From the NCBI GenBank assembly GCA_963669155.1, contig OZ022581.1, positions 11,505,997 to 11,569,996 of the forward strand: DNA of 64,000 nucleotides. Direction: 5' to 3'. Position 1 is the stretch's first letter. Every line of letters starts with the position of its first letter. The stretch is from Arbacia lixula (Eukaryota; Echinodermata; Echinoidea; Arbacioida; Arbaciidae). This document shows, one piece after another, positions 15,001 through 62,416 of the stretch. Under the pieces are notes generated by a model. It was given only the letters and a program-made list of their open reading frames with translations, made no database searches and was not told the DNA's origin. The translations under genes were made by a program, and so were the position numbers.

Positions 15001-17659
15001 AATGAAATCTTGTAGAATTCCTTCTTTTTCCCCTTTTTTTAAATGTTTTTCTTTTTATTTCCAAATTAGGACCTGTATTTTGATATGTGATTAGAAGTCA
15101 TTCAATTACAAGTTAGAAAAGAGTTATTCAGCTAACCATACTGTATCGTTTTGGGGTGAGGGTGGGGGTGGTCTGAAACAGCCAAGGTAAATACCTTGTT
15201 CAATTCAGATCTATGGGAATCCATAGCAAATAGAAAATTGTAGCTTGTGCATGTTTTCCATTTATTGCTTTTTCATTGCCTCCCTTAAAAAAAATAAATA
15301 AAAAAAATTCAGCCGCACCCTCTGCGACCCTCGCCCATAAGCTCACATCAATCATCTAGGTCTATTTCATAAGTTCAACCAAGGTATATCATATTTACTG
15401 AAACTGCACATCAAAATATAAATGATTCATGTTTTTTATGTAAATCATGATATTATCCTGAAATTGGCAATAGACGATCATTGGCTCAATAAAGCTTTAT
15501 AGTTTTAGGATGTATACATATATGTAATGGTATAAATGTGTCCATAAAGTGTTAAATTTCTCACTGAAATGGATACATATCTGCACATGCTGGTACTATA
15601 TATCAGTAGAAGAAGTACTTACAACTACTCTGTATGTAAAAAATTGTGAGTGTAGATGTAGAAACCTTTGCTAGACTAGCGATTGTTGTTATCCTGAATG
15701 GAAATTGTACCTAACTCCATCAGATGCTCACATTAACATACATGTAGGGATTAATTGTTTCTAGTGTAAAAGGGCTTAATATTGCAGTATATTCCTTCAT
15801 TTACAATAAACAATCATCGCAATGTCCAGTCCTAAGATCATGATTGTTTCATCATTGGAACAAGGATTTGTCTCTTCAAATCTGTCAGAAAAAATACCTA
15901 TTAATTATACAAATAAAGTTAAGCAAAATGATTTGCTGGTTGATGCATCCCTTGTTCCTGCAATATTGAAAGAATTATCTGAATAAGTTGGCTATATCTT
16001 GTGGTGTATACATTCTTGAACAAGGAGGATGAAGAATGAAATTATAGTCATATCCTCGGAAAACCTTTATTGTTAACTTTCATGAATAGTTTGTTTTAAA
16101 GAGGTTAGATAGTCAAGATTAAAGTACATGAATTGTTCATAGCTTTTGCTGCAAGCAGGATTGCTTTTGCCTTAGCATGAAAAGCAAACAAGTACATGCA
16201 TGTTGATCATAAACGTCCAATACTGTGTACGCTATTTATGTCACGGATGTTGAATCTTCACAAATTTTGCAAACGCATCCCAGACTGTAAGAGCGCCTAT
16301 ATACACACACTTCATAGCATGTCTGAAGGGATACATGGGCCGCAAATTTAGCTACTCACATATAATCTGTCAAGTCTGAAATCGCCCAAATATGGAAATA
16401 TGGCGTATACAGTATGAGAATGTGTCATCCAGAGCTTAGCAAACCGAAGTGTAAGATATGAATGAGACAAGTTAATCATGTTTTCTGGATCTTCTCTCAT
16501 TTTCTTCTCTCTTTTTTTGATCTGTTTTTGTTCGACGTTGATGGTTGATTAGTTGATCGTAAGTGTTTAAAGTTGTAGAGTCATCGAGAATGTTGGACTG
16601 GTGCATCTTGTTCATGTGATTGATTTTAAAAACTCTGATATTGACTGATTTCTGTTATGTAAGTGTTGCATTAATGTATGTATTTTCTAGTGTGTTTACT
16701 CATTTTATGCATGATTGTGTGATATTGTATTCTAAAACAGTTTGATGCATTCTAATAACTATTAACTCACTTATGATTTCTCCCAGAGATTATGTAAATG
16801 GATAATACTACAATGACAAACATGTACATGTAGATATAAAGAATTATATGAAAAACAATCTTACATTATAGAAAGCATTGAAAAAGAGTTTACGTACCTA
16901 TATACCAGTATTACCATTTATTACATACTTGTACTGTGAGAGTGTAATTGTCAACATACTCTACAAAATATTCATGTGCCCCACCCCTGCATTATTTTGT
17001 GAGTAAATATTTGGTGATACCATACACGTATATGTATGTTGCATTGTATAAATTCTCAAAACAAAAGTCAAATTTAACCTTGTTTAAATCTTTGAGCTTC
17101 ATGTAACGCCATGCCTGTCCCCGCTTCTTGTTTTCAAAGCACAATTCAAGAACACCTGCAATAATTAAACAAACCTCTCGCTTTGTCAAAGAATAAGGTT
17201 AATGTGACATCTGAGGTAAAAAAATCAAAACAAATATGCATTTGAGCATATAATTTGTCCCTATTCTGTAGACTTTGCACAAACTGTTTTTGTGGTGAAA
17301 TATTTATGTTCACATTTCAGCAAAGTCAAGTCAGATGGTACAAGCAATAGCCTTAACAATAAATAGAGGAAGAACTGTGTCTGCATTAAGTATCTATATT
17401 TTGCCACTGCCTACAGCTGTATCTTTATTTATTTGCACTGAACTGCATATCATCATTATTTCTTTCGAATGTGCATGGCCACAATTATGTTTTAGTTGTC
17501 GACATGACTTTATTTTGCATTGCATTGTTATTGGTAAGTGGCATGTGAATGATTATTGATTCCATATGAGGCTAAATTGACATGGAATAACGATTTAGAA
17601 GATATAAAAGAGTCATCAATGTAGAAAAACAATGATAGATATTACATGCTACTACTACG

Positions 17660-17747
<88 letters not shown>

Positions 17748-17825
17748 TTACTACTACTACTACTACTATTCCTACTGCTACTACGACGATGACGACTACT
17801 ACTACTACTACTGCTACTACTACTA

Positions 17826-17876
<51 letters not shown>

Positions 17877-17954
17877 TTACTACTACTACTACTACTATTC
17901 CTACTGCTACTACGACGATGACGACTACTACTACTACTACTGCTACTACTACTA

Positions 17955-18005
<51 letters not shown>

Positions 18006-18009
18006 TTAT

Positions 18010-18076
<67 letters not shown>

Positions 18077-18102
18077 GCTACTACTACTACTACCACTACT
18101 AT

Positions 18103-18167
<65 letters not shown>

Positions 18168-18168
18168 T

Positions 18169-18244
<76 letters not shown>

Positions 18245-18845
18245 ACTACTACTTATTCTTATAACAAATATTTATTATATAATGATATTATAGGAGCCAC
18301 TAATATTCTTCCTGATATTTCAACCAGTACTACTAATAAACACTACCACTGACATTGATACAAATAGAGCATACAAAGAAGATCTAACAGATTTTAGGTC
18401 ATGCAATTTTATTCATCTTCTGAATATCAGTCATAGAAAAATTGCAGTGCATAGATTGTTTTAAATTCTTCTCTACATCAACTAAAATGTGAACTCTATT
18501 TTGTTTCAAGTCTATTTTTAGGAAATTAATTGTAATTGTCCTGTTTATTGCCTTACATTTACTGTAAAGATATGTTCCATCAGCAGACGATACACCTGTA
18601 TGGAATACTGATTCTGGCCCACCGTAATCCTATCCCATAATTTCTTCAATGCTTTCCCACCCTTATTCCTCATCCTCCCTTTAAACAGTGTTCATATTGA
18701 CTAGTAATCCTGCATATTGGTATTGATGACCCTGTCATGCTTTCTTCTCACAGTGCTAAAGGTGCGAATCAATCGGCCAGCCCGGAGTATGGAGATCCCG
18801 GAACCCACAAACAAGAGCGGTGCCCCCGAACCAGTGATGGTGTAA
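6042..18845 (+). CDS. NDRG: NDRG family protein (N-myc downstream-regulated), 11 coding exons, 394 aa
   Basis: Exons with GT-AG boundaries and continuous phase: 6042-6266, 6681-6780, 8043-8163, 8541-8603, 9188-9248, 9600-9686, 10264-10341, 11776-11879, 12454-12571, 13098-13233 and 18754-18845 (TAA). Their sum is 1185 nt, within the family's usual length. Hallmarks in order: VTYHDIGLN, a cysteine-containing FFNFPDMQ block, the APGQEQGA loop, GFGVGAGANILARF, LILVNC and LQGLGY near the C-terminus. NDRG proteins have the alpha/beta-hydrolase fold but lack the catalytic triad. Here the nucleophile-elbow position is also glycine-rich without serine, so a non-enzymatic, probably cytosolic or membrane-associated role is expected. 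The first ~75 residues are an acidic, Gly/Gln-rich leader that I cannot align. The frame stays open from ATG 6042 back to the acceptor, so an upstream coding exon is possible. It could be the single invertebrate counterpart of NDRG1-4. Confidence 0.95.
7581..7685. mobile_element. Short MITE, TIR GGCCATATTCATGAAA
   Basis: A 105-bp element in NDRG intron 2. Its left terminus GGCCATATTCATGAAAGTTT is mirrored by TTTCGTGAATATGGCC at the right end. The similarity extends about 30 bp inward, through CTAGCCTAGTT and AACTAGGCTTAG. It is non-coding. Confidence 0.8.
8130..8385 (+). repeat. Three tandem copies of the NDRG exon 4 donor boundary
   Basis: The 48 bp at 8130-8177, covering the last 34 nt of exon 4, the GTGAGT donor and 14 nt of intron, are repeated without mismatch at 8232-8279 (offset 102). 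A third, more diverged copy of the exon 4 coding part lies at about 8339-8383 (CACATCAATGCGCC). The copies are separated by TG and TCTG/TCTA simple repeats. The second copy keeps an intact donor but would shift the frame if exonised. Confidence 0.9.
9423..9543 (+). repeat. Tandem duplication (~60 bp, two copies) in an NDRG intron
   Basis: GTCTGATCTAGATGAAAGCA at 9423 recurs as GTCTGATCTAGTTCAAAGCA at about 9486. Both units continue to CAATGCACAAGCTAG. This intronic minisatellite has no coding potential. Confidence 0.75.
9687..13097. other. NDRG introns 7-10, no further gene seen
   Basis: The sequence between the listed exons is AT-rich. It includes a G homopolymer at about 11958-11980 and an open frame of 143 codons at 11107-11538 with no recognisable similarity, which I consider chance. 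No embedded gene or RNA was recognised. Confidence 0.5.
13376..13650. mobile_element. Foldback repeat of the GTTTGACGAAAATCCGTC type
   Basis: The segment 13421-13476 (GTTTGACGAAAATCCGTC with flanks) is present in inverted form at about 13575-13629 (GATGGATTTTCATCAAAC). The hairpin arms are ~55 bp. Between them lies TGACGTCACGTGTGTGGTGC. A family with this structure is widespread in marine deuterostome genomes as far as I recall; the exact boundaries are uncertain. It lies in the last NDRG intron. Confidence 0.65.
13651..17645. other. Last NDRG intron, mostly unremarkable
   Basis: The 5.5-kb intron (13234-18753) between the two last NDRG coding exons. Open frames such as 14546-14938 show no recognisable protein features. 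An alternative C-terminal exon, as vertebrate NDRG genes use, could lie here, but none could be supported from splice sites plus similarity. Confidence 0.4.
17646..18256. repeat. ~600-bp TAC/GTA trinucleotide array with a 129-bp higher-order unit
   Basis: An almost unbroken (TAC)n array with occasional TAT, TGC, CAC and GAC variants. A distinctive block with ATTCCTACTGCTACTACGAC starts at 17768 and recurs at 17897, so part of the array is a 129-bp (43-triplet) duplicated unit. Because the period is three and no stop is created, several frames on both strands stay open and encode homopolymers of Tyr, Thr, Ser or Val. These are artefacts. The array lies within the last NDRG intron. Confidence 0.95.
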
Positions 18846-29775: not shown

Positions 29776-32700
29776 TCATACGACATATACTCCATGGCAC
29801 GGATGTTCACTGCAAGTGGAATCTATGTGCTTACACGCATTCCCATTCATCAATCCGTGTTCAGTGTCTTTAAGACGGGGCGAGGTTGGTTCTTGTGTTA
29901 TTGGTGTGTCTCCCTCGTGTGGTGCAGAGTCAGACAGCTCCACATGATGTTTATCCAGCTTTCTGTGCAGCGCCCTCTGTGCCACCTTAATCACGTAGAC
30001 CGAGAGGAAAAAGCTGATGAATACCTGGGAAGGGAGACAGGAGGATAAAGAGGAATAAGAGAAAAATAAATATCATAAGCAAATCGGAACAATATAAAAT
30101 CAAACGAGACATACTTGTGGACAAGTATAAGGTGGTCTTGCAGGTAAACTTTAACGTATGACCTCAAATGACCTTTGACCTTATCCTGTGACCTCCAACG
30201 GTACCATAACATGAAGGTACCCCCAGTGCATCTATGACCCAAGTTAGGTTGTAATCCAAGCAACCCATGTGAAGTTATTTGTCAAAAGAGAGTCTTGCAG
30301 GTAAACTTTAACGTATGACCTCAAATGACCTTTGACCTTATCCTGTGACCTCCAACGGTACCATAACATGAAGGTACCCCCAGTGCATCTATGACCCAAG
30401 TTAGGTTGTAATCCAAGCAACCTATGTGAAGTTATTTGTCAAAAGAGAGTCTTGCAGGTAAACTTTAACATAGAAAAAGAGAGTCTTGCACATACTCTTT
30501 AATATATGACCTCAAATGACCTTTGACATCATCACATGACCTCTGACAACACCATAACATGAAGATACCCCTAGTGCTTCTATCAACCAAGTGTGGCTGC
30601 CATTGCTGTAACAGTTGCCAAGTTATGGATCATAAGAGAGTCTTGCAGGTAAACTTTAACATTTGTGACGGACGACGGACGGACGACGGACGGACGACGG
30701 ACGGACGCCATTTGGATCCCTTAGTCTCGCCTTCACCTCCGGTAGGCGAGACAAAAATTGAGAAATTAGAAAAATCGCGGAGTTAGGGGACAAGGACAAT
30801 AGGACCATTTGGCTTTTGGTACGGTTGCTAGGTAACTTTCACCCTAACTTCGCGATTTTTTAAGCCCAATGAGAATGGCACTTATTTTTAAACTTGGATA
30901 AAAAAAAGCCTGGAAGCCAGCCAATCAGTGTTCTGTAGGAGGGGTTAGCACACCTGAGCAATGAGAAAGGCTGATGAAGACTGCTGTTCCTTGATGTCCT
31001 GGACGGAGCGCAGCGTTGACCCCATGTAGGAGTTCAGGAACTGGGTCGGTATTAGGCCTATAAATGATGCCATCATGAACGTTGGCGCTGGCACTTTGGA
31101 CAGCTACACAAGAAACATAAATAGGGGGAAAACAAGGGTGATACACATCTATCTTGGATAAAAAGTCTAGTATCAACCAGGGCCATGTTCAAGATTCATT
31201 TAATTGTCTATATAAAAATACAGAAAATTGGCCTCCACTTGCAAGAAGATACAAAAGAATGACATAAATTGACACAAAATAACACAAAATGTAATCAGTG
31301 CATTGAATAACAAAAATGTACATAATTACACAAAATACAGAAGGAGGAAAACCTTATTAAATCTCATGAAATACCTGCATGGCTGGCTAGTTCCCAAGAG
31401 CACAATTTGACTATGTTGCATATGTTGCATATAGGTTTTCAATTATTGTGACTTACCATCAATGGTAAATACCATGGGAACAGCCAATGAGCTCTCATTA
31501 TTGCATATATTGCCATGGGAGGTATCATTAATGGGAAGTTACAATAACTGAAAAACTATATGCAATGGGGCCCAGTGCTGGCATATAGGTGTCATGAGTT
31601 GACCAGGCAATGCACTATTCCAAGCACTTAAATGGTATAAAGAGCTTTTAAGAGACTTGAGTTTTCTCATTGAAAATATCATCTCATTTGTTTTGTTATG
31701 TATCAATATCACATTTTTTTAATATTACAGGGTATTTTTCATCCAATCCTCTCAAGCCGTTTTTTAAGTGACTCTGCTACTTTGTCAGTTTTTGGTTGCT
31801 TCTTATGAAGTGGAAATGAAACAAATGTACTCACTGCGAAAACTCCATTTTGGATGCCGAATGGGATGGGAGTCAATCTCGTCAGCGCGATCACCTGGAA
31901 CCCGTGCTCACTCTCCACCACCTGCACAATCACCTCCAGCTTGTCGTTCATCAACTTGTTCCGGATCACCGAGCTCAGCAGTGTCCTGCACACGAGGAAC
32001 GCGCAGGCCGAGCCGATCGCCACGGAGATGACGACGACGCAGGTGCCGAAGGCGGGGCCGAAGCGGTATCCTGCGACGATGTTGACCAGGATGTAGCCCC
32101 AGGTCATGGGGAAGGAGAGGAAGGTGAAGAGGATGAGGAAGACCAGGAAGCTCTCGGCATCCCCGGACTCCAACAGCCACCCAAGAATCAGCTCCACCTG
32201 GTTCAATGGGAGGAAACAAATCAAATATAAAAATAAATAACCTCCCTCTATACATGTGCGTGTGTGTGGGGGGGGGGGTACATTTAGCTCCACTTGGTTT
32301 AATGGAAGGAAACGATTCATCATTTTGTGAGTGGAATGAAAAAAAGAGGCTCAAAATCAGGTATGCAAATAATTAACTATTTGTGGGTGTGCCACAAGAA
32401 ATAGCTCCATCTGGTGTAATGTAACAAAGGGGAACTACATGTATCTTATCATGATAGAAGTGAAGAGAGATGCAAATAAGAAAGCTCTGATACCCTGTCA
32501 TACAGAAGAACATTAAACAAATTTGTGGAAAGAGTAAAAGTTACCATTCTCCTATGTAACTTCACAAGTACGATCAGAAACTAGTTACTACCAAAACCCT
32601 AAGAAAATAACTATGAGGGGAAATTAAGCTTCAAAGAGCTGGGCCCTACATGCGTTCACACCCATCTTTTCAATTGTCTTTGGTTGTGCATATATTGAAA

Positions 32701-42930: not shown

Positions 42931-42945
42931 CTTTATATATTCATC

Positions 42946-44145
42946 ATGGAGTCAAATTGCCTTGTTCCAGAGGATATGTGGACTAGCTTACCAGATCACA
43001 TTGTGGTGCATATCTTCTCATACCTTGAACTGAAGGATCGTTTCCAAGCCGCGCTCTCGTGCAGTGTTTGGTACGAGAACTTTCTTACTCCAACGCTCTG
43101 GAGGAAGTTTAAGTTCACCTTCTTCTCCGAAGCGGACTCGTGCCAGCTGAAGTGTATTGAACTCTACGGCAATCAGCTCAGGGATGTGTCCGTGATCCTG
43201 AATCAGAAGGAAGAGGTCAACCGCAACAATACTTACGAGGTCATCAAATGTTTGGCGGAATGCGGAGAGAGGAGACTGCAGGATATCAGTGTCCAGTTCA
43301 CAACAGACAACCCACTGTTTTTCAAGGGGGGCGAGTTTCTCAACAGTCTGGCACTCCTGTTCGGCCCACCGGCGCCCAGCGTTACCATGTACCACCACCT
43401 CCGCAAGGTTGACCTCAGCCGGTTGTCAGTATCGATTAATGATCTCCTCCTTTCTCTCCTCGCCAACAATCACCCAACGTTAGAGAGCCTCAACATCCAG
43501 AACCTCTCTCTCATGTGTCACATCAGCGCCCATAACTTGCTAGAGCTGGTGCAGAAGTGCAAGAAGCTCAAAGAACTCAGCACGTTCTACAAGTCCGTCT
43601 CAGAAGATGTCTTCCGAGCCTTCGCCAGCAAGGACCATGCGCCGCTGGAATACCTCTCCCTGGCCTGTCGGCGGGAGGAGAAATACCACAAGCCACTGTC
43701 GTCGGAGTCATGGGATATCCTGGTGGCGTCGGCTCCCAAACTCCGGGTGACGCTCCAGTTCGACCACACGATTGAGCGCCACCAGATCCAGCACATCCTG
43801 CACCCACAGATCCCGATCACGGAGCTCGGCATGCGCACCATGTCGGAGCTGCACCACGAGGTGGGCATTGTGGCCACCTTCTACTCCCAGACGCTGGAGA
43901 ACTTTGTCGTGGTTACCAAGGGTTCTGATCTCTTCAAGGAGCAGCTGATGCGGCTGGTGTCGTCGGCGCCCAAGCTCCGTGTGCTCCACTGCTTCTGTGG
44001 GCTGGACCCAGACACCATTGAGAAAATCAAGACGCTCAAGCCAGACCTGGTGAACTATACCCTCAAGACGGAGGACGACTTCAACGAGATGCAGAGGGTA
44101 TTCGTGGGTAGGGCAGCCAGGAATACTGTCATGTCAGGCCGGTAA
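42946..44145 (+). CDS. FBXL8: F-box/LRR-repeat protein 8 (FBXL8-like), single coding exon, 399 aa
   Basis: F-box at residues ~12-55 (LPDHIVVHIFSYL, then W...F..P.LWR), followed by irregular leucine-rich repeats to the C-terminus. F-box proteins are substrate receptors of SCF (SKP1-CUL1) ubiquitin ligases. The F-box binds SKP1 and the LRRs choose the substrate. Among F-box proteins the best match I can recall is vertebrate FBXL8 (about 374 aa). Shared blocks are KPLF-like NPLFFKGG, the L-DL-RLS segment, LLELVQKCKKL, and near the C-terminus LRVLHCFC and NYTLK. FBXL3 and FBXO33 are more distant relatives. The stop TAA overlaps a possible splice donor (CCG|GTAAAAG at 44141/44142). Splicing to an acceptor at 45569 would join CG to A then TGA, giving the same last residues. 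Confidence 0.9.
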   Translation: MESNCLVPEDMWTSLPDHIVVHIFSYLELKDRFQAALSCSVWYENFLTPTLWRKFKFTFFSEADSCQLKCIELYGNQLRDVSVILNQKEEVNRNNTYEVIKCLAECGERRLQDISVQFTTDNPLFFKGGEFLNSLALLFGPPAPSVTMYHHLRKVDLSRLSVSINDLLLSLLANNHPTLESLNIQNLSLMCHISAHNLLELVQKCKKLKELSTFYKSVSEDVFRAFASKDHAPLEYLSLACRREEKYHKPLSSESWDILVASAPKLRVTLQFDHTIERHQIQHILHPQIPITELGMRTMSELHHEVGIVATFYSQTLENFVVVTKGSDLFKEQLMRLVSSAPKLRVLHCFCGLDPDTIEKIKTLKPDLVNYTLKTEDDFNEMQRVFVGRAARNTVMSGR

Positions 44146-51319: not shown

Positions 51320-54300
51320 CTATTGCTCCTCAACGAAGAGATATATCGTGCCATCTCCCGTGCCATCATCATCCTCCTCCATGGCTGCGATGACTGATCC
51401 CTCTGAGATGATTCCTTGGTTGACCATCTGCTGTTGGAGTGCCACAGCCTGCTCCTGGGTGATGGTCTGGGTTTCGTGTGGTGCAGGGGTCTCCTGGATC
51501 TGGCCCTCCTGCTCCAGGACGGGTGGCTGAGGTTCTTCCGCTGCCTCGGCGGCGATCTGGAGCTGGTCCCCCTGCCCCTGCTGGACTGACATCATCATTT
51601 GGCCGTCCTGACCTCCCTGGACGGCGGCCAGGCTGCCGTTCATCATCTGCAGGGCCTCGTCCACGTTCTGGCCGTCGCCGCCCACGGTCAGGATGACGGG
51701 CATGGTGCCGTCACTGGTCTGCACCAGCTGCACGGTGCCCTCCGTGCCCTGCTGGACCGCCACCTGAATGGTGCTGCCGTCAGCCGTGGTCAGGGTTTGC
51801 GCCTCGCTTACTACCACTTCTTCAGCAGCAGCCTGCTCCTGCATCTGCATGCGCTGCCGGCGGGTGATCCGCTTGTTGGGGCTGCTGATCTCCTCCGATG
51901 CCTTGCGCTTCTTGCCACTGCCATCAGTCTCCTGGATTAGGTTGTGCTTACTGCGCTGGTGGTTGATCAGGGTCTGCTTGTGTTTGAAGGTCTCATGGCA
52001 TTCCTCGCATTCATATGGCCTCTCGCCCGTATGCACCCTCATGTGAATCACCAGATGGCGCTTCTGAGGTGCGGAGTAGCCGCACTCCCCACACTTATAG
52101 ATCTTCTCCCCTCTGTGGCCCCGGACATGTTGCATGTAGGAGAAGCGGTCGGTGAAGGCATTCTCGCAGATCTTGCACACGAGAGGCTCACCTGCTGTGT
52201 GCATCTTACGGACGTGGGTCTTCATGTCTGCGAACCGTCCAAAAGTGGTGTCGCAGTGGTCGCACTTGTGGGAGGGGCGGTTGCCTACGTGCTTCCACTC
52301 ATGCTCCTTGAGGCTGCTCTTCTGTGAGAAGGACTGGTCACACTGGGAGCAATTGAACGGCCGCTCCCCCGTGTGAACTCTCATGTGACGCTTCAGCTTG
52401 TAGTTGTCAGTACTGGCATACTCACACAGGGTGCATTTGTAGGGCTTCTCTCCTGTATGGGAGCGCATGTGCCTCTTGATCTTGGAGGCCTCCACACTTA
52501 GATAGTCGCAGAGGGGGCACTTGTGCGGCTTCTCGTGAGTGTGCATGTACTTCATGTGGCGGCCCAGCTCCCCGGACGTCCCAAAGGCCTTTGGGCACAG
52601 CTCGCACTTGTAAGGCTTGGTTCCGGAATGGGTGTTCTCGTGGTTGCGGAGCAGCGTGGACGTGCGGAATATCCGTCCACACAGCTGGCATTCGTGCACC
52701 TTGGGTCTCCTCCCGGGCCCTCCCTTCTTAGCGCGATTCAGAACCTGATCCAGGAGACGACCATCGTCGAATTTGGGCACCACGTATCTGGTCCTCTTCT
52801 TGGTCACTGCAGCCTCCACTGGGACCTTCTCGTCGCCCCCGACAGCCACAGGTGTTGTGTCATCCTCGCCGGCGTAGAAGTCGTACACTGATGGGTCGTG
52901 GCCATCCTCTCCATCCACCACTTCACGGACGATGACGATCTGCGTCTGCATCTTAGCTGCCTCGTCCTTGCGTGGCCGGCCACGCTTTCGACGGACAGGC
53001 TTTTGCACCACCACGGCCAACTCTTCACTCTCAGCGGCCGCCATCTGAAGAGCGCCCTCTTCTTGCTGGCCTGCCTCCCCCTCCACCTGGTGTAACTCTG
53101 CATAAGCAGACTGGTCCCCAGACGACCCTGCCTCGGCTGTGGAGGTGGAGATCACCTGTGGCTGGTCACCCTGGGCCTCAGACACTACTACTGTCGTGGG
53201 AGTTGAGTCAGATCCATTGACAGTCTGCAGGATGGTGAATACCTCCGTTCCGGGTTCTGTACCAGGCTGTGGAGAATAAGATTCAGTTACAGAGTTATGC
53301 AAAATAACACATGTAAAACACCATACCATGAATACTACACACAAATGAATGACCCTAAAAATATTTAAAATCATTTATGCTACGGAGAACCACACATCTA
53401 CAAATGGTCTATGTGTGACAGGCGCTTAACATGGCTTTCAATATCTTACCTATTAAGCAGGCTAATATGTCCTGAAAATCTAACATCAATACACTAGGGA
53501 ACATACCCTGAAAAGAGTTAAAACGCCCACAGCTTCATTATAAATATGAATATATCTGATATTAGTTGAATAAATCTATTTTATATTTTAAAAATTCTAC
53601 ACAATTAATGATGGTACGAGGAGTATTGCCTCATTGTCATTAATATTATAGGCAAACCCTTCCCATTTCCCCTAGATGTGAGATAGTCCACATCCTCTTA
53701 CCTGCGACATTGCCAGCTGTGTGGTGCCGTTGTGTGAGACGGGTATGAGCTGGGCGTTCTGGTTGGTCTGGTAGACGATGTTATCTCCTACCATGCTGAC
53801 GGGCGCCCCTGAGAAGGAGATCTGTGCCACGCCCTGGTCCATGGGGAGCTGGTTGTTATCTGGCATAGCAACCATCAGCACCTAGGACAGCAAGGAATGT
53901 GAATATAGTTAACCCTCTCATTATGTATGATGTATGATTACTCAATATGCTTTTTATGACATGGTAGTGGGAGGCTTAAACATGTCCATTAAGACCACTC
54001 TTCTTGAATTCCTCCAAAGCAGTAAGACAGCTTACTCTTCGAAAGAGCTGTAGTACGATATGGGCGCCATTTTAGGAAGCAAGTTCCCGGATGAAGTTTA
54101 AAGTTTATTTATTATTTCTTTCGACCCCTTTCGAGGTATGAGAAATACATAATTAATTGTAAAATAAAGTTTATAATACACACATATGTTTTCTTTAACT
54201 CTTAAGCTGCTCCTCCTGCAACACACAAGTGCCAGTGCACTCAACCCTTAACTGCCAGCCACCAATCTCCCCATTGCCAAGTTTATTTTGGGTACTGATC

Positions 54301-57300
54301 ATTAGGGTGTCTATTACTCTCTATGTTTGAGCCACCATAACTCTCCATTAGTAGGTTACATGAAAATATGTTGTACATGAAAGTTGTCGGGAATTTTATA
54401 ATCTCTCTATTGATACCACATCAGTTGATGACTTTCTATCTTTACAGCTGCAAATTAGCAATATTCACATGTATAGTCCACTGGCTGTTGGCCTGCAAAG
54501 TTTTGTGTATGTGCTGTGTCTATGTACAGTCCTATAATTAATGTACACTAAAGGCATGTAGTACTGAAATGGTGGTTTTATTGATTTTTCTCATCCTGTA
54601 GGCCTATATTTCATTGGGTTATCCTGACCCTAGATATTTCACGGAAAAGCTAGTAATCTCCTGTAATCCCCTGACTTCTTTATCACTTTCTCTCCATTGT
54701 TCAATTTAGACACCTCCCCCTAAAAAGAGGTGACAGAGCATCCTAATTCCCAAAACAATGTATTGATTTTTGCAGTGATTTTCCTAGTCACTTGTGGTGT
54801 CTGATTCCTTGTTTATGCACACATATAGCACTTTAGAATTCCTGCCTAGTAATGATCACATTTACAACTATTGCATTACAATAAATCATTATTTCATCAA
54901 TATTGTAGTACATTCTCACTTCACAGATTGTTATGAAGATGGGGGGAGACCTGTGGCTGTACATCCCTTAACACCACTGCCCTGGCTTCGTCTGGATCAT
55001 AAAATCTTTGCCTCTTCCTCTGTGGTGGCGCCATGATACTAATAAAATCCGGCAAATACTCGAAAAATTTCAATGTACGTCGTAGTAGCAAACGCAATGT
55101 TGTGATAGCTCAATTCAAACGCCGTACAATAAAAGCTATTTCCGTGCATGTGCGATTCACAATACAATGCAATCTGTGTGAACAATGAGCAACCTTCCGT
55201 TTGTGCGCAGTCATGTATGAAGCAGTTGATTGATCGCGCGCTTGCCTGCATGAAGCAGTGGAGAGTCGGCTCGCATGCAAGACCATGGCAGGCTATGAGT
55301 TAAGGAAAAGAAAAGAAAACAAGATGAAAACTAGAGCAATGCGACTGCCACGCAGTCGATAAATATGCCTCCGCCTCTTTGCTATTCTCAGAAAATGTGT
55401 ATGTTTGGTGGGCAATGTACCATTGCTTCTATGTGAAATGAAAATATCACATTATGTTTTTCCAAGTTTAGCCAAGTTTGGCAATGTTCAATGACTTTTG
55501 ACCTCTTACTTCTTTGACTTCCAATCTAACCAGTCTGTCTAAATCCATCCTTGTATCAAGTTTGTTTAAAATTAGCCAATTTTGGGGTGAAGTTCATTGA
55601 CCTTTGACCTTTCAGGAATTTTACCCATACTTCACCAGTCTACCTCCATGAAGTAATACATCTCTGTACTACTATGTTTGGTTTGAATTGGATCATTAGT
55701 ATTGGATTCAATGTGAAAAATATCTATTTGGGGGCAATTTTTCGCCAATTCTGGCAAAGTTCATTGACCTTTGATCTCTGACCTTTGAGAAATTTCATCA
55801 AAAATGTCATGCAGTCTACCCCCAAGTAGTGATCCATCTTTGCACCATGTTTGGTTGGTATTGCATCATTGGATTTTGATACACCTTGAAAATTATCACT
55901 TTGCAGTCAATCGGCAGCGCTCGCTCGTTCTATAGAAATCGTGAGCGTTTTATTTTTCGTCTCGCGAAATCTCACGCGCGGATTTTGCTGCGCCTAGATT
56001 ATGAAGGAATTCGACATGCTCGCAAGATCTTTTGCTGGTGTCTTCTGTAAGCATACTAATCAGGAATTTTTTAGACAGGGATTGAGATTATATGTTTCTT
56101 AATAAATATGTTCATTTTTTTTCGAAATCCGCAAAGGAGTTTTTATGTTATTTGTTTTCAAAAACAGGCCTCAATTTTTTTTTGAAATATGTAAGCTCTC
56201 AGACCTTGCTGGATCCTGACCCTTCTATGGATTGTACGGCAACGACAGTTACGGCTCTAAAAAGCCAATACTTCAGCGGAGATATGGATTCCAATATTGT
56301 TTGGGCTCAAAAATAAAACATTTGTGCTATTCGTCTTCAAAGTGACGCGAGATTTCAGAAATCGTACGGACTTCGCAACCGATATATAGGTAAGCTCTCA
56401 GACTTTGCTGGATCCTGACCCTTCTACAAATTGGACGGCAACACCAGTTACAGCTTTGGAAAGCCAGTACTCTAGCGGAGAATTTGATTCCAGTTTTGTT
56501 TGGTCTAAAGAATAAAAAATTTGTGCTATTCGTCTTCAAAGTGACGAGAATTTTCAGAAATCATACGGACTGCGCAACCGATATTCGTCCGCAGGCAGCA
56601 GAAAACACGCGATTTTATTTTCAGCTCGGTAGTCGTGACCTAGTTCACTTGACCTCTCGAGCCGCGAAAAGGGTCTCCTTTTCAAACTGCGATATCTCTA
56701 TGAATAAACCATATTTTTGTACACTTTCTTTTGCAACTGTATGTTGGAGGTTCAAATTTACCAAGTATGAAAAAACATTCAATTAAAACAGGAAGAAAAA
56801 TATTGCAAAATCGAGATAAATATGTGGTACTAATTAAATAAAGAAAAATGAAAATAAACTCTATATTTCAATGTCAATCGCTTTTGAGCCCCCAACACTT
56901 ATAGATCATCTGAAGCGAAATTTATTGTACTTTGTGATCATACCATTTTTATTCAACCTCTCCTTGTAGAAGGGTCAGGATCCAGCAAAATATCCACCAT
57001 GTTCAAATCCACACTGCATGAGACATGGCGATGTTGTGAGCGATTCTAACCAGCCAATCATAGTCCGCGACCCTTGGATCGCCGGTAGCATTTCGCTATT
57101 ATCGTGGACTATGATTGGCTGATTAGGATCGTTCACAACTTCGTCACATCTCGCTCATTTTGGATTTGAACATGGTTGATGTTTTGCTGGATCCTGACCC
57201 TTCTATGGGGGGAGAGTGAAAAATAATGGTATCTCCATAAAGTACAATAAATTCCGGTTCAGATGACCTCTAAATGTTAGGGGCTCAAAAGCGATTGACA

Positions 57301-60300
57301 TTGAAATATAGAGTTTATTTTCATTTTTTAAATTTTTATTAGAACCACATATTTATCTCGAATTTGCAATATTTTTCTGCCTGTTTTAGTGAAATGTTTT
57401 TTCACACTTGGTAAATTTCGACCTCCAACATACAGTTACAAAAGGAAGCGTACGAAAATATGGCATATTCATGAAGATATCGCAGTTTGAAAAGGAGACG
57501 TTTCCCGCGGTTTGAGAGGTCAAGTGAGGGTCACGACTACCTCGCTGAAAATAAAATAAGCGTATTTTCCGGTGCCTGCCATTTGGCTGTTTGGGGGCAA
57601 TTTTAGCTAATTTTTGGCAAAGTTCATTGACCTTTGACCTTTGAACTCTCAGGAATTTTACCCAAACTTTCACCAGTCTACCTCCATGAAGTGATGCATC
57701 TCTGTACCATGTTTGGTTAGAATTGCGCCATTGGATTTGGATTTGGGTTCATTGTGAAAAATATCAATTTTTGCAAAGTTCATTGACCTTTGACATTCCA
57801 GCAATTTCACCAACAATGTCACCAGTCCAACCTCAAGAAGTGATCCATCGTTTCACTATTTGGTTGGAATTACACCATTGGATTTGGATTTATTGTGAAA
57901 ATTTTAAAGTTTGGGGCAATTTCTAGCCAATTTTGGCAAAGTTCATTGACCTTTGACCTCTGAACTTTCAGGAATTTACCAAAAATGTCACCAGTCTATC
58001 CCCAAGTAGTGATCTATCTTTGTACCATGTTTAATGAGAATTGCATCCTTGGAATTAGATTTATTGTGAAAAAGGTGAATTTTTGGCAAATTTTCACAAA
58101 TTTCATTGACCTTTGACCTCTGACCTTTCAGGAATTTTACCAATAATGTTACCAGTCTATCCCCAAGTAGTGATCCATCTTTGTACCATGTTTAATGAGA
58201 ACTGCATCCTTGGATTTGGATTTATTGTGAAAAAGGTCAATTTTGGGCAATTTTTACAGAGTTCATTGACCTTTGACCTTTGACCTCGATCAGATTTGAC
58301 CCCAATTTTACACACTTCATTAGTTTTATGCAATACATACATGTACCAAGTTTGAAGCAAATCTGCTTAACGGTTCTCAAGATATTGCCAAAACGGATTC
58401 GGGACGGACGGACGGACGGACGGACGGACGGACAACCCGAAAACATAATGCCTCCGGCCACTTCGTGGCGGAGGCATAACAAATATCAACGCAGGCAATT
58501 TTGGCTATGTCGTCTGTTTTTTACTAGTTTGCAGGAGTAAGTAAGTATGGGCCTGGATGTGTGAGAGCAAAAGAGGGGGGGGGGGGATGAGAGATGGGGG
58601 TGGGGGATCAGTTTATATATGGTAGTATACATTTCTAGAAATATTCCTGGATTCACCCATCATTTTTTTGTTATTCTCTAAAACAAATTATAATCGCAGT
58701 GCATGCTGCCAGCGTGCTGCTTTGCAGTCTAAAATGGCAGCGGTATCGCCCCATGGCATACTTCACTTTCTTGTGTGCAAATGCGAGAGAGTAATTAGTC
58801 TTGCGCTGCTTTGCAGCGCTCTACGGCCTTTGCTTACAATAGAACAATGAAAAACCTAATTCGTATCTGTTTGAAACTTTCCACAATATATTTTGATATA
58901 CAAACAGGTGGACTGAAATCAATTCTGCAAAAGTGCTCAACCAAATGAGAATGCACTTACCTGTTGTTGCTGACCGCCATCTTCCATATTGTGAACCATC
59001 ACCACCTGCTCTCCGTTCACCGTCTGGATCCCAGCGATGCCTGTCATTTAAGGGAAGACAAAAAAAAAATCAATAAATAACCAGAGTTCTCTTTGTTCAG
59101 TCAAACCTGACTACAAAGGCTACTGCCATGAAGCTCACCTGTCTATAAAGACCACGAAAATTATATCCCTTCAGAGGAGTCTGAATGTAATGGCATTTAT
59201 ACACGCACCACATTTCCATTAAGATATTTTTCCATTTTTTTTTAGTATACAGGTTTGATTGAAAGCCTTTGCATATTGGAAGTATCATACAGTGATATGT
59301 TCCAGTGCACAAGGCAAAGAGCTTCATATAGAGCACAGTGAAAAAGTGAAAACTTACAACAATATTAGCACTCTATTATATAGTAGGCCTATTATATAGT
59401 ATAAGAAAGATACAACAAAAGATAAAAGACAATTTCCAGAATACCAGTGTTCATTTGAGATTTAAGATGGATGAAATGAATACTTACGGCTAGGATCCAC
59501 CTTGGCTCCATTCTCATCAACCAAGTTTGCGGTATCCAGATGTTGTAATAATTGAGATTCTGCACTGATTTCACCCTGCACACACAAACAATGAAGCACA
59601 AAACAAATGACAGTGTCAGAATCATACTCTTTCCTGAATCATTGACATGCCTTCTACTGATAAGTAAATTAATCTATAAAGAAATAATTCATTCATTTGA
59701 TTATTTTGTCTTTAAACTCATGGTACCTTTTCCAACAATCTTTGCTTCTAATAATTGTACATAGTCATTTAGTTGCCACAGCTACATGTATATCAGAAAC
59801 TTTTTCCTTTCAAATTCAGCGTTCCATTTCACAAACATTTTGGGAGAAGCAACATATGATCTACAGAGTCTGATCATTTACAAATAAACATTATCATGCC
59901 CATGCACAATACACTTGTAAACATTCAAATCTGTTTGCTGTCATTTTATTTACTTAATGCAGTTTGTTCACTCATAAATACATGTATGTATGGGGTCAAC
60001 CACAAAACAGAGACAAGCTATTGGCTATTTATATATGTATGGTAAACTCTTCTTTAGCAATCACCTGTATAGAAAGATCATCTGTCTATAAAGACCACAT
60101 TTTTTTACCAACCTCAGTGGTCTTTATACACAGGTTTTACTGTATTGCTGTGTATCGCTGTATGACACTAACCTCTTGGGTGACCTGTGGGGCGTTCTGG
60201 TTGTTGATATTGGCTGAGGCATTGGCAAGCAGCTGCAGAGTGTGGGTGATGTCAATGGTGGCTTGGTCAGGCACTTGTTCTGGCGGCTCCACCCCCTCCC

Positions 60301-62416
60301 CTTCCACCTCCTCTGTCTCTTCTTTCACAATGGCTGATGGACAAAACATGGAGAAATAGTAAAAAAGAATAGTCATTATCAATATTGACTTTAGCCTTAA
60401 GATACAGTGAACTGCACTGTTGTGAATGTTGAGTTCTGCATGATATACTGATTGACATCACAATTATAGCAGGCAATTTATACATCTTTATACATGTGCA
60501 TGCATCAGATAAAGCACGAACAAGGAGTATTTTGCACATTGCGCATTGTAACAATAACTGCCTGTGTTAACATTAAGTGCAGACTGTTCATTATCATTAT
60601 ATATCCAGTAAATCAAATTGTTAATTTTCTTTTGTAAATGTACTTTGTGAATTATGCCCTGTATTTTGTTGAAAAACATGTATCCTGGGCTCTGTGTTAC
60701 CTTGTGTTCTATATATCTATGTATTTGAATAAAAGGATTAAAAAAAACCCCAATGCAACATATCAGGTTTACTGATTATATTATCTCTCAAACACTTACA
60801 TACTAGTAACAATTACCTTGCTATCCCTTTTTTGCTTCTGGTATACTACATGTACTAGGGTTATGTCCTCTTTTAAGTAATATTCATGAATTGTTTTTAT
60901 GCAGCCTTACCAGATATATGTTCTTCCCCATCTGTGACTGGTACGTTCTCCTCATTTGCTTCCTCTGCTGGAGTCTCCCCCTCCCCGTCTGCTGCTGCTT
61001 CTGTTGTTGCTGCTTCTGATTCACTCACTCCAGCAGCTACATGTCACAATGAGGACAGGAAGAAGTTCTTATACTGGTAATAAATCCTCAAGGGTTAGTG
61101 CTATTGTTATAAATGCTCTACAAACATACATTTAGCATGTTAGAATACTGTAAAACCGGTAATTTTTGCAGGGGTTAAGTTTGGCAGCACACCTACAACA
61201 TATTCGCCGGATATTTTCACACACATGAATTTTTTTCACCCAAAAAAGTCCACCCGATACATTAAAATAATTAACAAAGCACTGGCATGAACGTTTTTAA
61301 CGCCTGCTAAAAAGAAGTATTCTGGTTTTATAATCGTGGTGGTGTTAAATTTGTGCTTGCTCTGTGTTGCGCAAAACGTGTGAAAATAAATTTAATATGA
61401 AAATAACCAGTTTTACAGTATACATTAATGATTCATGATACAGCACTAACATGTGGTGAAGTTTTTTCTGTGTTGCGCGAAACGTGTGGAAATAAATTTC
61501 ACATGAAAATTACTGGTTTATAGTATTAATGATAAAACACTGACATAGGGTGAAGGTTTAAAGTGAACCACCAATTGACTATAAGCTGACTTCAGCATAT
61601 GCCTAAGCTCTGAGCACTTTTCAAACAGCAGAGGGGAGGGACTTCATGGGTGTGTTAGGCAACCTTCAGCTGGGGCCATGACGCAAGGTAAATAAACCCA
61701 ATAAAATATCCATACAGCTGATTTTGTCTGGGTGGCATGGCGTCAGTTGCATTGACATGCAAACTGCTTTGAAGGGATTTAACTTGAACGGTTTTTACAA
61801 AGAGTTATCTTGGTAGACAGGTATGATGGTATGAGCAAATATACTTAATGCGGCGAATATCCTTAAGAGGGGGCTTATGAATCCCATTCGCCACCAAATG
61901 ATCACAAGTTGATTGCCAAAAAAAAAAAACAACAACAACTGTGTAACTTGTGTTGTGAATATAGAAAGCATGATCGTTACATTTGCAAAGGAAACATATT
62001 CTCATTGTTTTCACAACATTTTCATAACATTCTTATACATGGCACTATATTCCAAATCGTAGTAAAATATTTTGAAGGATCAGCTAGAATTCTCTTTTTG
62101 ACTAACAAGTGAAATTAACCCATTTAGAAGAGAATTGTTTGATGTAGTTGCATGCCTTACTGTCAGATTGATTATGTTAGAAAATAAAGCCAGACACTGT
62201 ACCTGGTGCTTGCTGAGCAGCCCCCTGGGCCGCAGTAGTAGCAGGCCCAGACGAAAGCTCTTCATTAAAGTTCTGGAGGTAGGTCTCCAGGACATTCATG
62301 GAAGGGCCTTCTCCCTCCTCTCCCTCCCCACCGGCTCCTCCTGCGGTGTCCTCCTGGGCCGCTTGGCTGGTGGGCTCCTCTGGCTGGTCACCTGGCTGGT
62401 CCACACTGGTCTCCAT
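51320..62416 (-). CDS. CTCF: CTCF-family zinc-finger protein, 7 coding exons, 931 aa
   Basis: Minus-strand exons with GT-AG sites and consistent phases: 62416-62203 (ATG), 61036-60911, 60333-60173, 59575-59488, 59040-58961, 53881-53702 and 53266-51320 (TAG). The N-terminal half is acidic/Gln-rich. An AT-hook (RRKRGRPRK) is at ~375-383. SVYDF at 409-413 matches the cohesin-docking segment of vertebrate CTCF. Nine C2H2 fingers (474-724) align in order with human fingers 2-10, most clearly LCGRIFRTSTLLRNH, TSGELGRH, MHTHEKP and YKLKRHMR. Human finger 1 is replaced by a basic, finger-less stretch, and finger 11 by a Lys/Arg-rich segment. The C-terminal ~200 residues are low-complexity, Gln/Glu-rich. 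CTCF binds DNA in the nucleus and stops loop-extruding cohesin. Human CTCF is 727 aa with 11 fingers. A 5' non-coding exon is expected upstream (acceptor before 62428). A lineage-specific CTCF paralogue remains possible. Confidence 0.88.
51944..52696 (-). other. Nine-finger C2H2 DNA-binding array within CTCF-like exon 7
   Basis: Each finger has the Cys2-His2 pattern, joined by TGEKP-type linkers (TGEKP, TGERP, HEKP). By order and linkers they correspond to human CTCF fingers 2-10. Helix residues in the counterparts of fingers 3 (TSGELGRH), 4 (SVEASKIKRH) and 5 (STDNYKLKRH) are close to human. Those of 6 (SQKSSLKEH) and 7 (GRFADMKTH) differ. The whole array is intronless. Confidence 0.88.
52877..52891 (-). 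other. SVYDF cohesin-docking motif (codons)
   Basis: Encodes SVYDF preceded by Asp-Pro and followed by an acidic run. In human CTCF the equivalent DVSVYDFEE segment (Y226, F228) binds the composite SA2-SCC1 surface of cohesin. The motif lies ~60 residues before the first finger, a similar place to that in vertebrates. Confidence 0.8.
53267..55330. other. CTCF-like introns flanking exon 6
   Basis: Apart from the coding exon at 53702-53881, this is AT-rich intron sequence in which I recognise nothing. The acceptor for exon 7 is TTCTCCACAG on the minus strand at 53267-53276. Confidence 0.5.
55331..58480. mobile_element. Composite element with (A)TATGCCTCCGCC TIR, tandem GACCTTTGACCT units and GGAC minisatellite
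   Basis: The left end has the hairpin CGACTGCCACGCAGTCG (55342-55358), then AAATATGCCTCCGCC (55361). The right end is a (GGAC)n minisatellite (about 58403-58431), then the hairpin TGCCTCCGGCCAC/GTGGCGGAGGCA (58449-58476), whose end is the inverse of TATGCCTCCGCC. Between them run monomers of roughly 120-165 bp, each with TTCATTGACCTTTGACCT, TTTCACCAGTCTA-like and ATTGGATTTGGATT segments. No protein is encoded. A separate foldback is nested at 55904-57589. The element lies in the 4.9-kb CTCF-like intron between exons 5 and 6. Confidence 0.82.
55904..57589. mobile_element. Nested foldback element with TIR and 4-bp TTTG target duplication
   Basis: Termini CAGTCAATCGGCAG and the inverse of CTGCCATTTGGCTG form ~14-bp imperfect TIRs. 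TTTG flanks both sides (55900-55903 and 57590-57593). Removing the element restores the interrupted monomer sequence CACTTTGGGGGCAATTTT. Inside are two ~500-bp inverted arms (about 56592-57060 and 57110-57585). The left part also carries a ~200-bp tandem duplication (about 56191-56387 and 56393-56588). TGGATCCTGACCCTTCTA occurs four times in both orientations. Mirror-image short frames over the arms are artefacts of the palindrome. Confidence 0.85.
58481..60910. other. CTCF-like introns between exons 2 and 5
   Basis: Besides the exons at 58961-59040, 59488-59575 and 60173-60333, this is AT-rich intron with a G tract at about 58575-58585. Short dispersed repeats containing TCTATAAAGACCAC occur at 59142 and 60085. 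The latter is a small foldback with GTGGTCTTTATACACAGG. Confidence 0.5.
61146..61420. mobile_element. MITE with TACTGTAAAACCGGT termini, right end locally duplicated
   Basis: The left end TACTGTAAAACCGGTAATTT pairs with AAAATAACCAGTTTTACAGTA at the right. The right end, from TGTTGCGCAAAACGTGTG, is repeated ~100 bp downstream (about 61470-61525) as TGTTGCGCGAAACGTGTG through ATTACTGGTTTATAGTA. It lies in the first intron between CTCF-like coding exons. Confidence 0.8.
61421..62202. other. CTCF-like first coding-exon intron, remainder
   Basis: AT-rich intron. Apart from the duplicated MITE end, nothing else was recognised. Confidence 0.45.

What the first reader, a model, noticed from the sequence alone, without database searches (positions are those of the whole stretch)
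51320..62416. CTCF-like protein with nine recognisable fingers (human ZF2-10) and no recognisable ZF1 or ZF11
The order, linkers and helices match human CTCF fingers 2-10. The ZF1 position is a finger-less basic stretch (KKRTRYVVPKF...) and ZF11 is replaced by a Lys/Arg-rich segment. Human ZF11 helps read the upstream motif, and ZF1 and ZF10 take part in RNA binding. The architecture could mean altered target choice in this lineage.
Basis: partly seen in the sequence, partly recalled or inferred. Interest (0 to 1): 0.78.

Follow-up and report, generated by a model that had tools for sequence, protein, structure and literature searches.

The report
Nine-finger CTCF of an echinoderm
This is the ordinary copy, in an echinoderm that is probably a sea star, of the genome-folding protein CTCF; it has nine of the usual eleven zinc fingers, a loss already described for echinoderms, and it keeps the short motif that in other animals grips cohesin.

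Summary
A seven-exon gene on the minus strand (62416 to 51320, 931 aa) encodes nine C2H2 fingers corresponding to human CTCF ZF2-10. They lie in one uninterrupted last exon with the ZF1 position and the whole C-terminus, so no separate exon could restore ZF1 or ZF11. Searched with human CTCF, the same 607 Mb genome gives this locus first (299 bits); the next hit has 168 bits. No second CTCF appeared, though only part of the candidates was scored.

The genome is an echinoderm's (mitochondrial code; 22 large contigs, fitting a sea star). The headline is in print: Magri et al. [quoted passage not shown]

The sequence adds: the cohesin-binding YDF motif is retained; ZF2-5 reading residues are unchanged; ZF6 looks like an ordinary Kruppel finger; ZF8 and ZF10 are largely rewritten.

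Best reading: a working CTCF ortholog that reads the core motif through ZF3-7, contacts cohesin through YDF, and probably sits on DNA for less time. Published sea urchin work that suggests a mitotic rather than interphase role speaks against part of this reading.

The parts
62203..62416 (-). exon 1, start ATG at 62416; donor CCAG|gtacag
60911..61036 (-). exon 2 (acidic N-terminal region)
60173..60333 (-). exon 3
   Evidence: an alternative in-frame donor (CCCCACAG|GTCACC) lies 12 bases upstream in the sequence printed
59488..59575 (-). exon 4
58961..59040 (-). exon 5
53702..53881 (-). exon 6
51320..53266 (-). exon 7: YDF motif, ZF1 position, nine fingers and whole C-terminus in one open frame
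52877..52894 (-). PSVYDF, counterpart of the human cohesin-binding motif (Y226/F228)
   Evidence: human residue numbers from PMC7645679 (passages)
52700..52801 (-). ZF1 position: KKRTRYVVPKF...GRRPK, basic, no Cys
   Evidence: weak residual similarity to human ZF1, 34 of 5000 shuffles as good
51944..52696 (-). nine C2H2 fingers, counterparts of human ZF2-10
52289..52357 (-). finger at the ZF6 position, closest to human ZF10 rather than ZF6; Kruppel-like in look
51842..51913 (-). Lys/Arg-rich segment where ZF11 would be (KKRKASEE...ITRRQRMQM)
   Evidence: weak residual similarity to human ZF11, 104 of 5000 shuffles as good

Best explanation
This is the CTCF ortholog, as far as seen the only one, of an echinoderm that is probably a sea star. 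Shown: nine fingers in the ZF2-10 register, unchanged reading helices in ZF2-5, ZF1 and ZF11 gone within a continuous exon, and a YDF motif at about the human distance before the fingers. Inferred: it binds the core CTCF motif through ZF3-7 and halts or stabilises cohesin through YDF on SA-SCC1. Having lost ZF1 and ZF11, and with ZF10 rewritten, it grips the flanks of its sites less. That gives shorter residence and weaker, less directional boundaries than in vertebrates.
For: Human CTCF is the best PDB match (7w1m, 1.5e-86). The ZF2-10 register scores 315 against about 100 for its neighbours. Human CTCF ZF1-10 searched in the own genome gives this locus at 299 bits, 52% identity, from the last residues of ZF1 on, and then 168 bits for the next. 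YDF lies 65 residues before the first finger Cys here; in human the distance is 226 to 296, i.e. 70 (numbers). CTCFL lacks YDF (PMC7471279, passage). Fly CTCF has the motif and binds SA-Vtd through it (PMC7880997, passages). Echinoderm CTCFs lost two fingers, and their boundaries are enriched for CTCF motifs without orientation bias (PMC13317027). [quoted passage not shown] Deletion around ZF1 or mutation of ZF1 weakens insulation in the study of PMC7645679 (passage).
Against: ZF6, ZF8 and ZF10 keep only 1 of 4 reading residues each, so site choice could differ even within the core. PMC13317027 finds CTCF motif enrichment at echinoderm boundaries much lower than in zebrafish and none at loop anchors, and concludes that CTCF functions differently there. 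PMC11457506 cites Watanabe et al. 2023 for the suggestion that sea urchin CTCF acts in mitosis rather than interphase (passage; the cited paper is not held). Binding, expression and cohesin contact were not measured here. Orthology rests on comparison with human; no other animal CTCF was fetched for a tree.
Confidence: 0.8

Rival explanations
1. A diverged paralogue of CTCF (BORIS-like), with a canonical 11-finger CTCF elsewhere in the genome.
For: 52% identity to human over ZF2-10 is modest for a CTCF. Not all candidates were scored (65 of 733, 137 of 859) and both match lists were cut.
Against: Two searches of the own genome list no other CTCF-like hit: next are 196 bits at 41% with the window protein and 168 bits at 49% with human. 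Twelve loci read besides the locus itself show no CTCF finger order (L002 and L008 are one gene, L010 and L014 overlap); their best run against the human fingers is 213 over 11 fingers, against 315 over 9 here. YDF is present, whereas CTCFL lacks it.
Confidence: 0.04
2. Gene-model or assembly artefact: ZF1 or ZF11 is supplied by an unseen exon or was lost by a sequence error.
For: No transcript data were available.
Against: The ZF1 position, the fingers and the C-terminus share one open frame of 1947 bases with no intron between them. The window holds no further finger by the strict pattern. Two missing fingers agree with published echinoderm CTCFs.
Confidence: 0.02
3. The protein has changed its target sites (rewired specificity) rather than only its residence time.
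For: ZF6, ZF8 and ZF10 helices differ from human at 3 of 4 reading positions each, ZF7 at 2 of 4. CTCF motifs are absent at nearly half of sea urchin boundaries and not enriched at loop anchors (PMC13317027).
Against: ZF3-5 are unchanged at the four reading positions, and the vertebrate CTCF motif is the top-ranked motif of non-dynamic open chromatin in sea star and sea urchin (PMC13317027, passage).
Confidence: 0.2
4. The ortholog works mainly on mitotic chromosomes and not as an interphase boundary protein.
For: PMC11457506 cites Watanabe et al. 2023 for sea urchin CTCF functioning during mitosis rather than interphase (passage); the title of that paper, seen in reference lists, speaks of mitotic progression.
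Against: CTCF motifs are enriched at interphase boundaries and in non-dynamic open chromatin of echinoderms (PMC13317027). The cited paper itself could not be read.
Confidence: 0.12

Closest known systems
CTCF of echinoderms (Patiria miniata, Strongylocentrotus purpuratus, Hemicentrotus pulcherrimus)
   Same: Eleven ancestral fingers reduced by two, as stated in the text of PMC13317027
   Different: Which two are lost is in a figure I could not see; here they are ZF1 and ZF11. Watanabe et al. 2023 (H. pulcherrimus) is not held.
Human CTCF (PDB 7w1m, 8ssq, 5yef)
   Same: Finger order ZF2-10, reading helices of ZF2-5, YDF before the fingers
   Different: No ZF1, no ZF11; ZF6, ZF8 and ZF10 diverged; no significant phmmer alignment outside the fingers with 7w1m, and none for a 119-residue stretch with YDF
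Human CTCF deletion mutant lacking ZF1, ZF10, ZF11 and the RNA-binding region (PMC11194110)
   Same: Outer fingers absent
   Different: The natural protein keeps a ZF10, with a changed helix
Drosophila CTCF (PMC7880997)
   Same: Cohesin-binding motif before the fingers; [quoted passage not shown]
   Different: Finger complement of the fly protein was not compared here

Membership tests
CTCF | Fingers in the CTCF order with best similarity to the finger of the same rank | tested here: met
   8 of 9, register ZF2-10
CTCF | Core reading helices ZF3-7 conserved | tested here: inconclusive
   15 of 20 positions (-1, 2, 3, 6) identical; ZF3-5 all, ZF6 1/4, ZF7 2/4
CTCF | Eleven fingers (usual number, not universal) | tested here: not met
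   Nine; echinoderm orthologs are published with two fewer
CTCF | YDF cohesin motif N-terminal to the fingers | tested here: met
   PSVYDF, 65 residues before the first finger Cys
CTCF | Best CTCF match in its genome, no second one | tested here: met
   within the 65 of 733 and 137 of 859 candidates that were scored
CTCF | Binds the CTCF motif and stalls cohesin | not testable with these tools
   No binding or contact data for this protein
CTCFL/BORIS | YDF absent | tested here: not met
   YDF present; feature from PMC7471279 (passage)

The most novel reading that the evidence does not exclude
Echinoderm CTCF is a natural separation-of-function protein. It keeps the core-reading fingers ZF3-5 and the YDF cohesin grip, but has lost ZF1 and ZF11 and rewritten ZF6, ZF8 and ZF10. 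The published absence of orientation bias at echinoderm boundaries would then be due to the finger array (short residence, no ZF1) and not to loss of the YDF contact.
Probability: 0.25. Interest if true: 0.6.

Novelty: already known. Interest (0 to 1): 0.3.

Why it matters
CTCF is the best-known boundary protein of vertebrate genomes, and echinoderms are a test of which of its features are ancestral. That YDF is kept while two outer fingers are gone makes a clean prediction about which part of the protein underlies directional loops. My one search for CTCF, YDF and sea urchin together returned 0 papers; that is a narrow search of one library, so the YDF point may be in print elsewhere.

Tried and rejected
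AlphaFold of residues 181-520 of the open frame without relatives gave mean pLDDT 37 and was not used. A PDB search with 119 residues including YDF found nothing at E up to 10. One translation was set in the wrong frame. Rfam and tRNA scans of the window were empty. Considered and rejected: a generic Kruppel array (finger order); BORIS-like paralogue (YDF); missing exon. A possible identity with the P. miniata v3.0 assembly was weighed: that assembly is 608 Mb with N50 23.1 Mb and no clear set of chromosome scaffolds.

The similarity of the ZF1 and ZF11 positions to the human fingers (34 and 104 of 5000 shuffles as good) hints at decay in place but is weak, and was tested on two stretches chosen by me.

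Full report
What was checked. The minus strand of 62416-51320 holds a gene of seven exons; the six introns begin with GT and end with AG, and the joined coding sequence of 2796 bases has one stop, at its end. The last exon (53266-51320) is 59% G+C with 74% at third positions, in a window of 37.5% G+C. It contains, without interruption, the stretch PSVYDF, a basic finger-less stretch, nine C2H2 fingers, a Lys/Arg-rich stretch and the C-terminus. Since no intron lies between these parts, a missed exon cannot restore ZF1 or ZF11. A six-frame scan of the window with a strict finger pattern finds these nine fingers and no others.

Identity. Human CTCF is the best match among solved structures (7w1m, E 1.5e-86, best stretch residues 293-546, i.e. 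ZF2-10). Compared finger by finger without the zinc ligands, 8 of 9 fingers match best the human finger of the same rank in the register ZF2-10. The register total is 315, against 99 (ZF1-9) and 102 (ZF3-11); none of 100,000 random orders reaches 315, the highest being 309. The exception is the ZF6 position, whose finger resembles human ZF10 more and has only 6 of 23 residues in common with human ZF6. Reading positions -1, 2, 3 and 6 are identical in ZF2, ZF3, ZF4 and ZF5. One of four is kept in ZF6, ZF8 and ZF10, two of four in ZF7, and three of four in ZF9.

A second CTCF. The window lies in a 607 Mb genome of 590 contigs. Searched with the window protein, the locus itself matches over all 684 residues of the open frame; the other listed matches stay within residues 213-478, the fingers and their edge, and the best of them has 196 bits at 41% identity (65 of 733 candidates scored, list cut). 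Searched with human CTCF ZF1-10, the locus is first (299 bits, 52%, query residues 22-282 of 284, i.e. from the end of ZF1 on) and the next place has 168 bits (137 of 859 candidates scored, list cut). The fingers of L002-L008 and L010-L014 show no CTCF order; their best run against the human fingers is 213 over 11 fingers, against 315 over 9 here (several of these loci overlap). A second CTCF is thus unlikely but not formally excluded.

Which animal. Contig C590 carries a mitochondrial COX1 gene. Aligned with the best PDB match (8ugh, a mammalian enzyme by recall; 923 bits), both of 2 AAA codons stand at Asn. Of 4 AGA codons one stands at Ser and the others at Asn, Ala and Lys, none at Arg. 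Of 10 ATA codons 9 are aligned, 6 of them at Ile, two at Leu, one at Val, none at Met. Twelve TGA codons lie inside the match. This is NCBI code 9, used by echinoderms and flatworms; so close a match to the mammalian protein speaks against a flatworm, on general knowledge. Twenty-two contigs of 18.2 to 55.6 Mb add up to about 587 of 607 Mb, and C23 has 0.6 Mb (sum made by hand). n=22 is the number given for the sea star Patiria pectinifera in PMC13317027, and n=21 for the purple sea urchin. A sea star is therefore likely.

What is in print. Magri et al. (PMC13317027; abstract, sections 5 and 6, and passages seen) state that echinoderm CTCFs lost two and hemichordate CTCFs one of eleven fingers, as noted before in Hemicentrotus. 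They report that CTCF motifs are enriched, much less than in zebrafish and without orientation, at sea star and sea urchin boundaries, and not at loop anchors. The headline of the finding is therefore known. Which two fingers are lost is not in the text I saw. A passage of PMC11457506 cites Watanabe et al. 2023 for a mitotic rather than interphase role of sea urchin CTCF; that paper is not held.

Mechanism. In PMC7645679 (passages), the CTCF N-terminus is said to bind RAD21-SA2 through residues 226-230; Y226A/F228A alone gives Hi-C defects like deletion of the whole N-terminus, and a deletion around ZF1 or a ZF1 mutation (H288R) weakens insulation. The window protein has YDF 65 residues before its first finger Cys, against 70 in human. 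The human sequence around YDF was recalled and not retrieved. [quoted passage not shown] From this I infer core-site recognition and a cohesin contact, with weaker holding. RNA binding, which has been attributed to ZF1 and ZF10 (PMC11194110; PMC8084297), may be reduced or taken over by the basic stretches; that was not tested.

Limits. No other animal CTCF was fetched, so orthology rests on human alone. No expression or binding data were available, and the SA subunit search did not complete. The resemblance of the ZF1 and ZF11 positions to the human fingers is weak.

Noticed in passing
window 42931-44145 (+): Open frame of 404 codons with an F-box (Pfam F-box-like, 3.1e-12).
   Followed up: no
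window 31739-32350 (-): Open frame with a VTT domain (Pfam VTT_dom 5.5e-10); TMEM64-like by recall.
   Followed up: no
window 17572-18352: Long low-complexity repeat of trinucleotide type, judging by its translations, open in several frames on both strands.
   Followed up: no
G000 C12 14.94-15.04 Mb, C7 8.33-8.40 Mb, C11, C17, C21: Clusters of multi-finger zinc-finger genes, some with equal or nearly equal match scores and frame lengths, which may mean recent tandem expansion.
   Followed up: partly
literature, PMC3784565: A 2013 paper says that a gene annotated as CTCF-related in S. purpuratus really encodes MBF1, the histone H2A enhancer activator, and that CTCF may be lost in some echinoderms (passages). 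MBF1 is recalled, not retrieved, as a nine-finger protein. If it is the same gene, a long-studied activator would be the echinoderm CTCF.
   Followed up: partly
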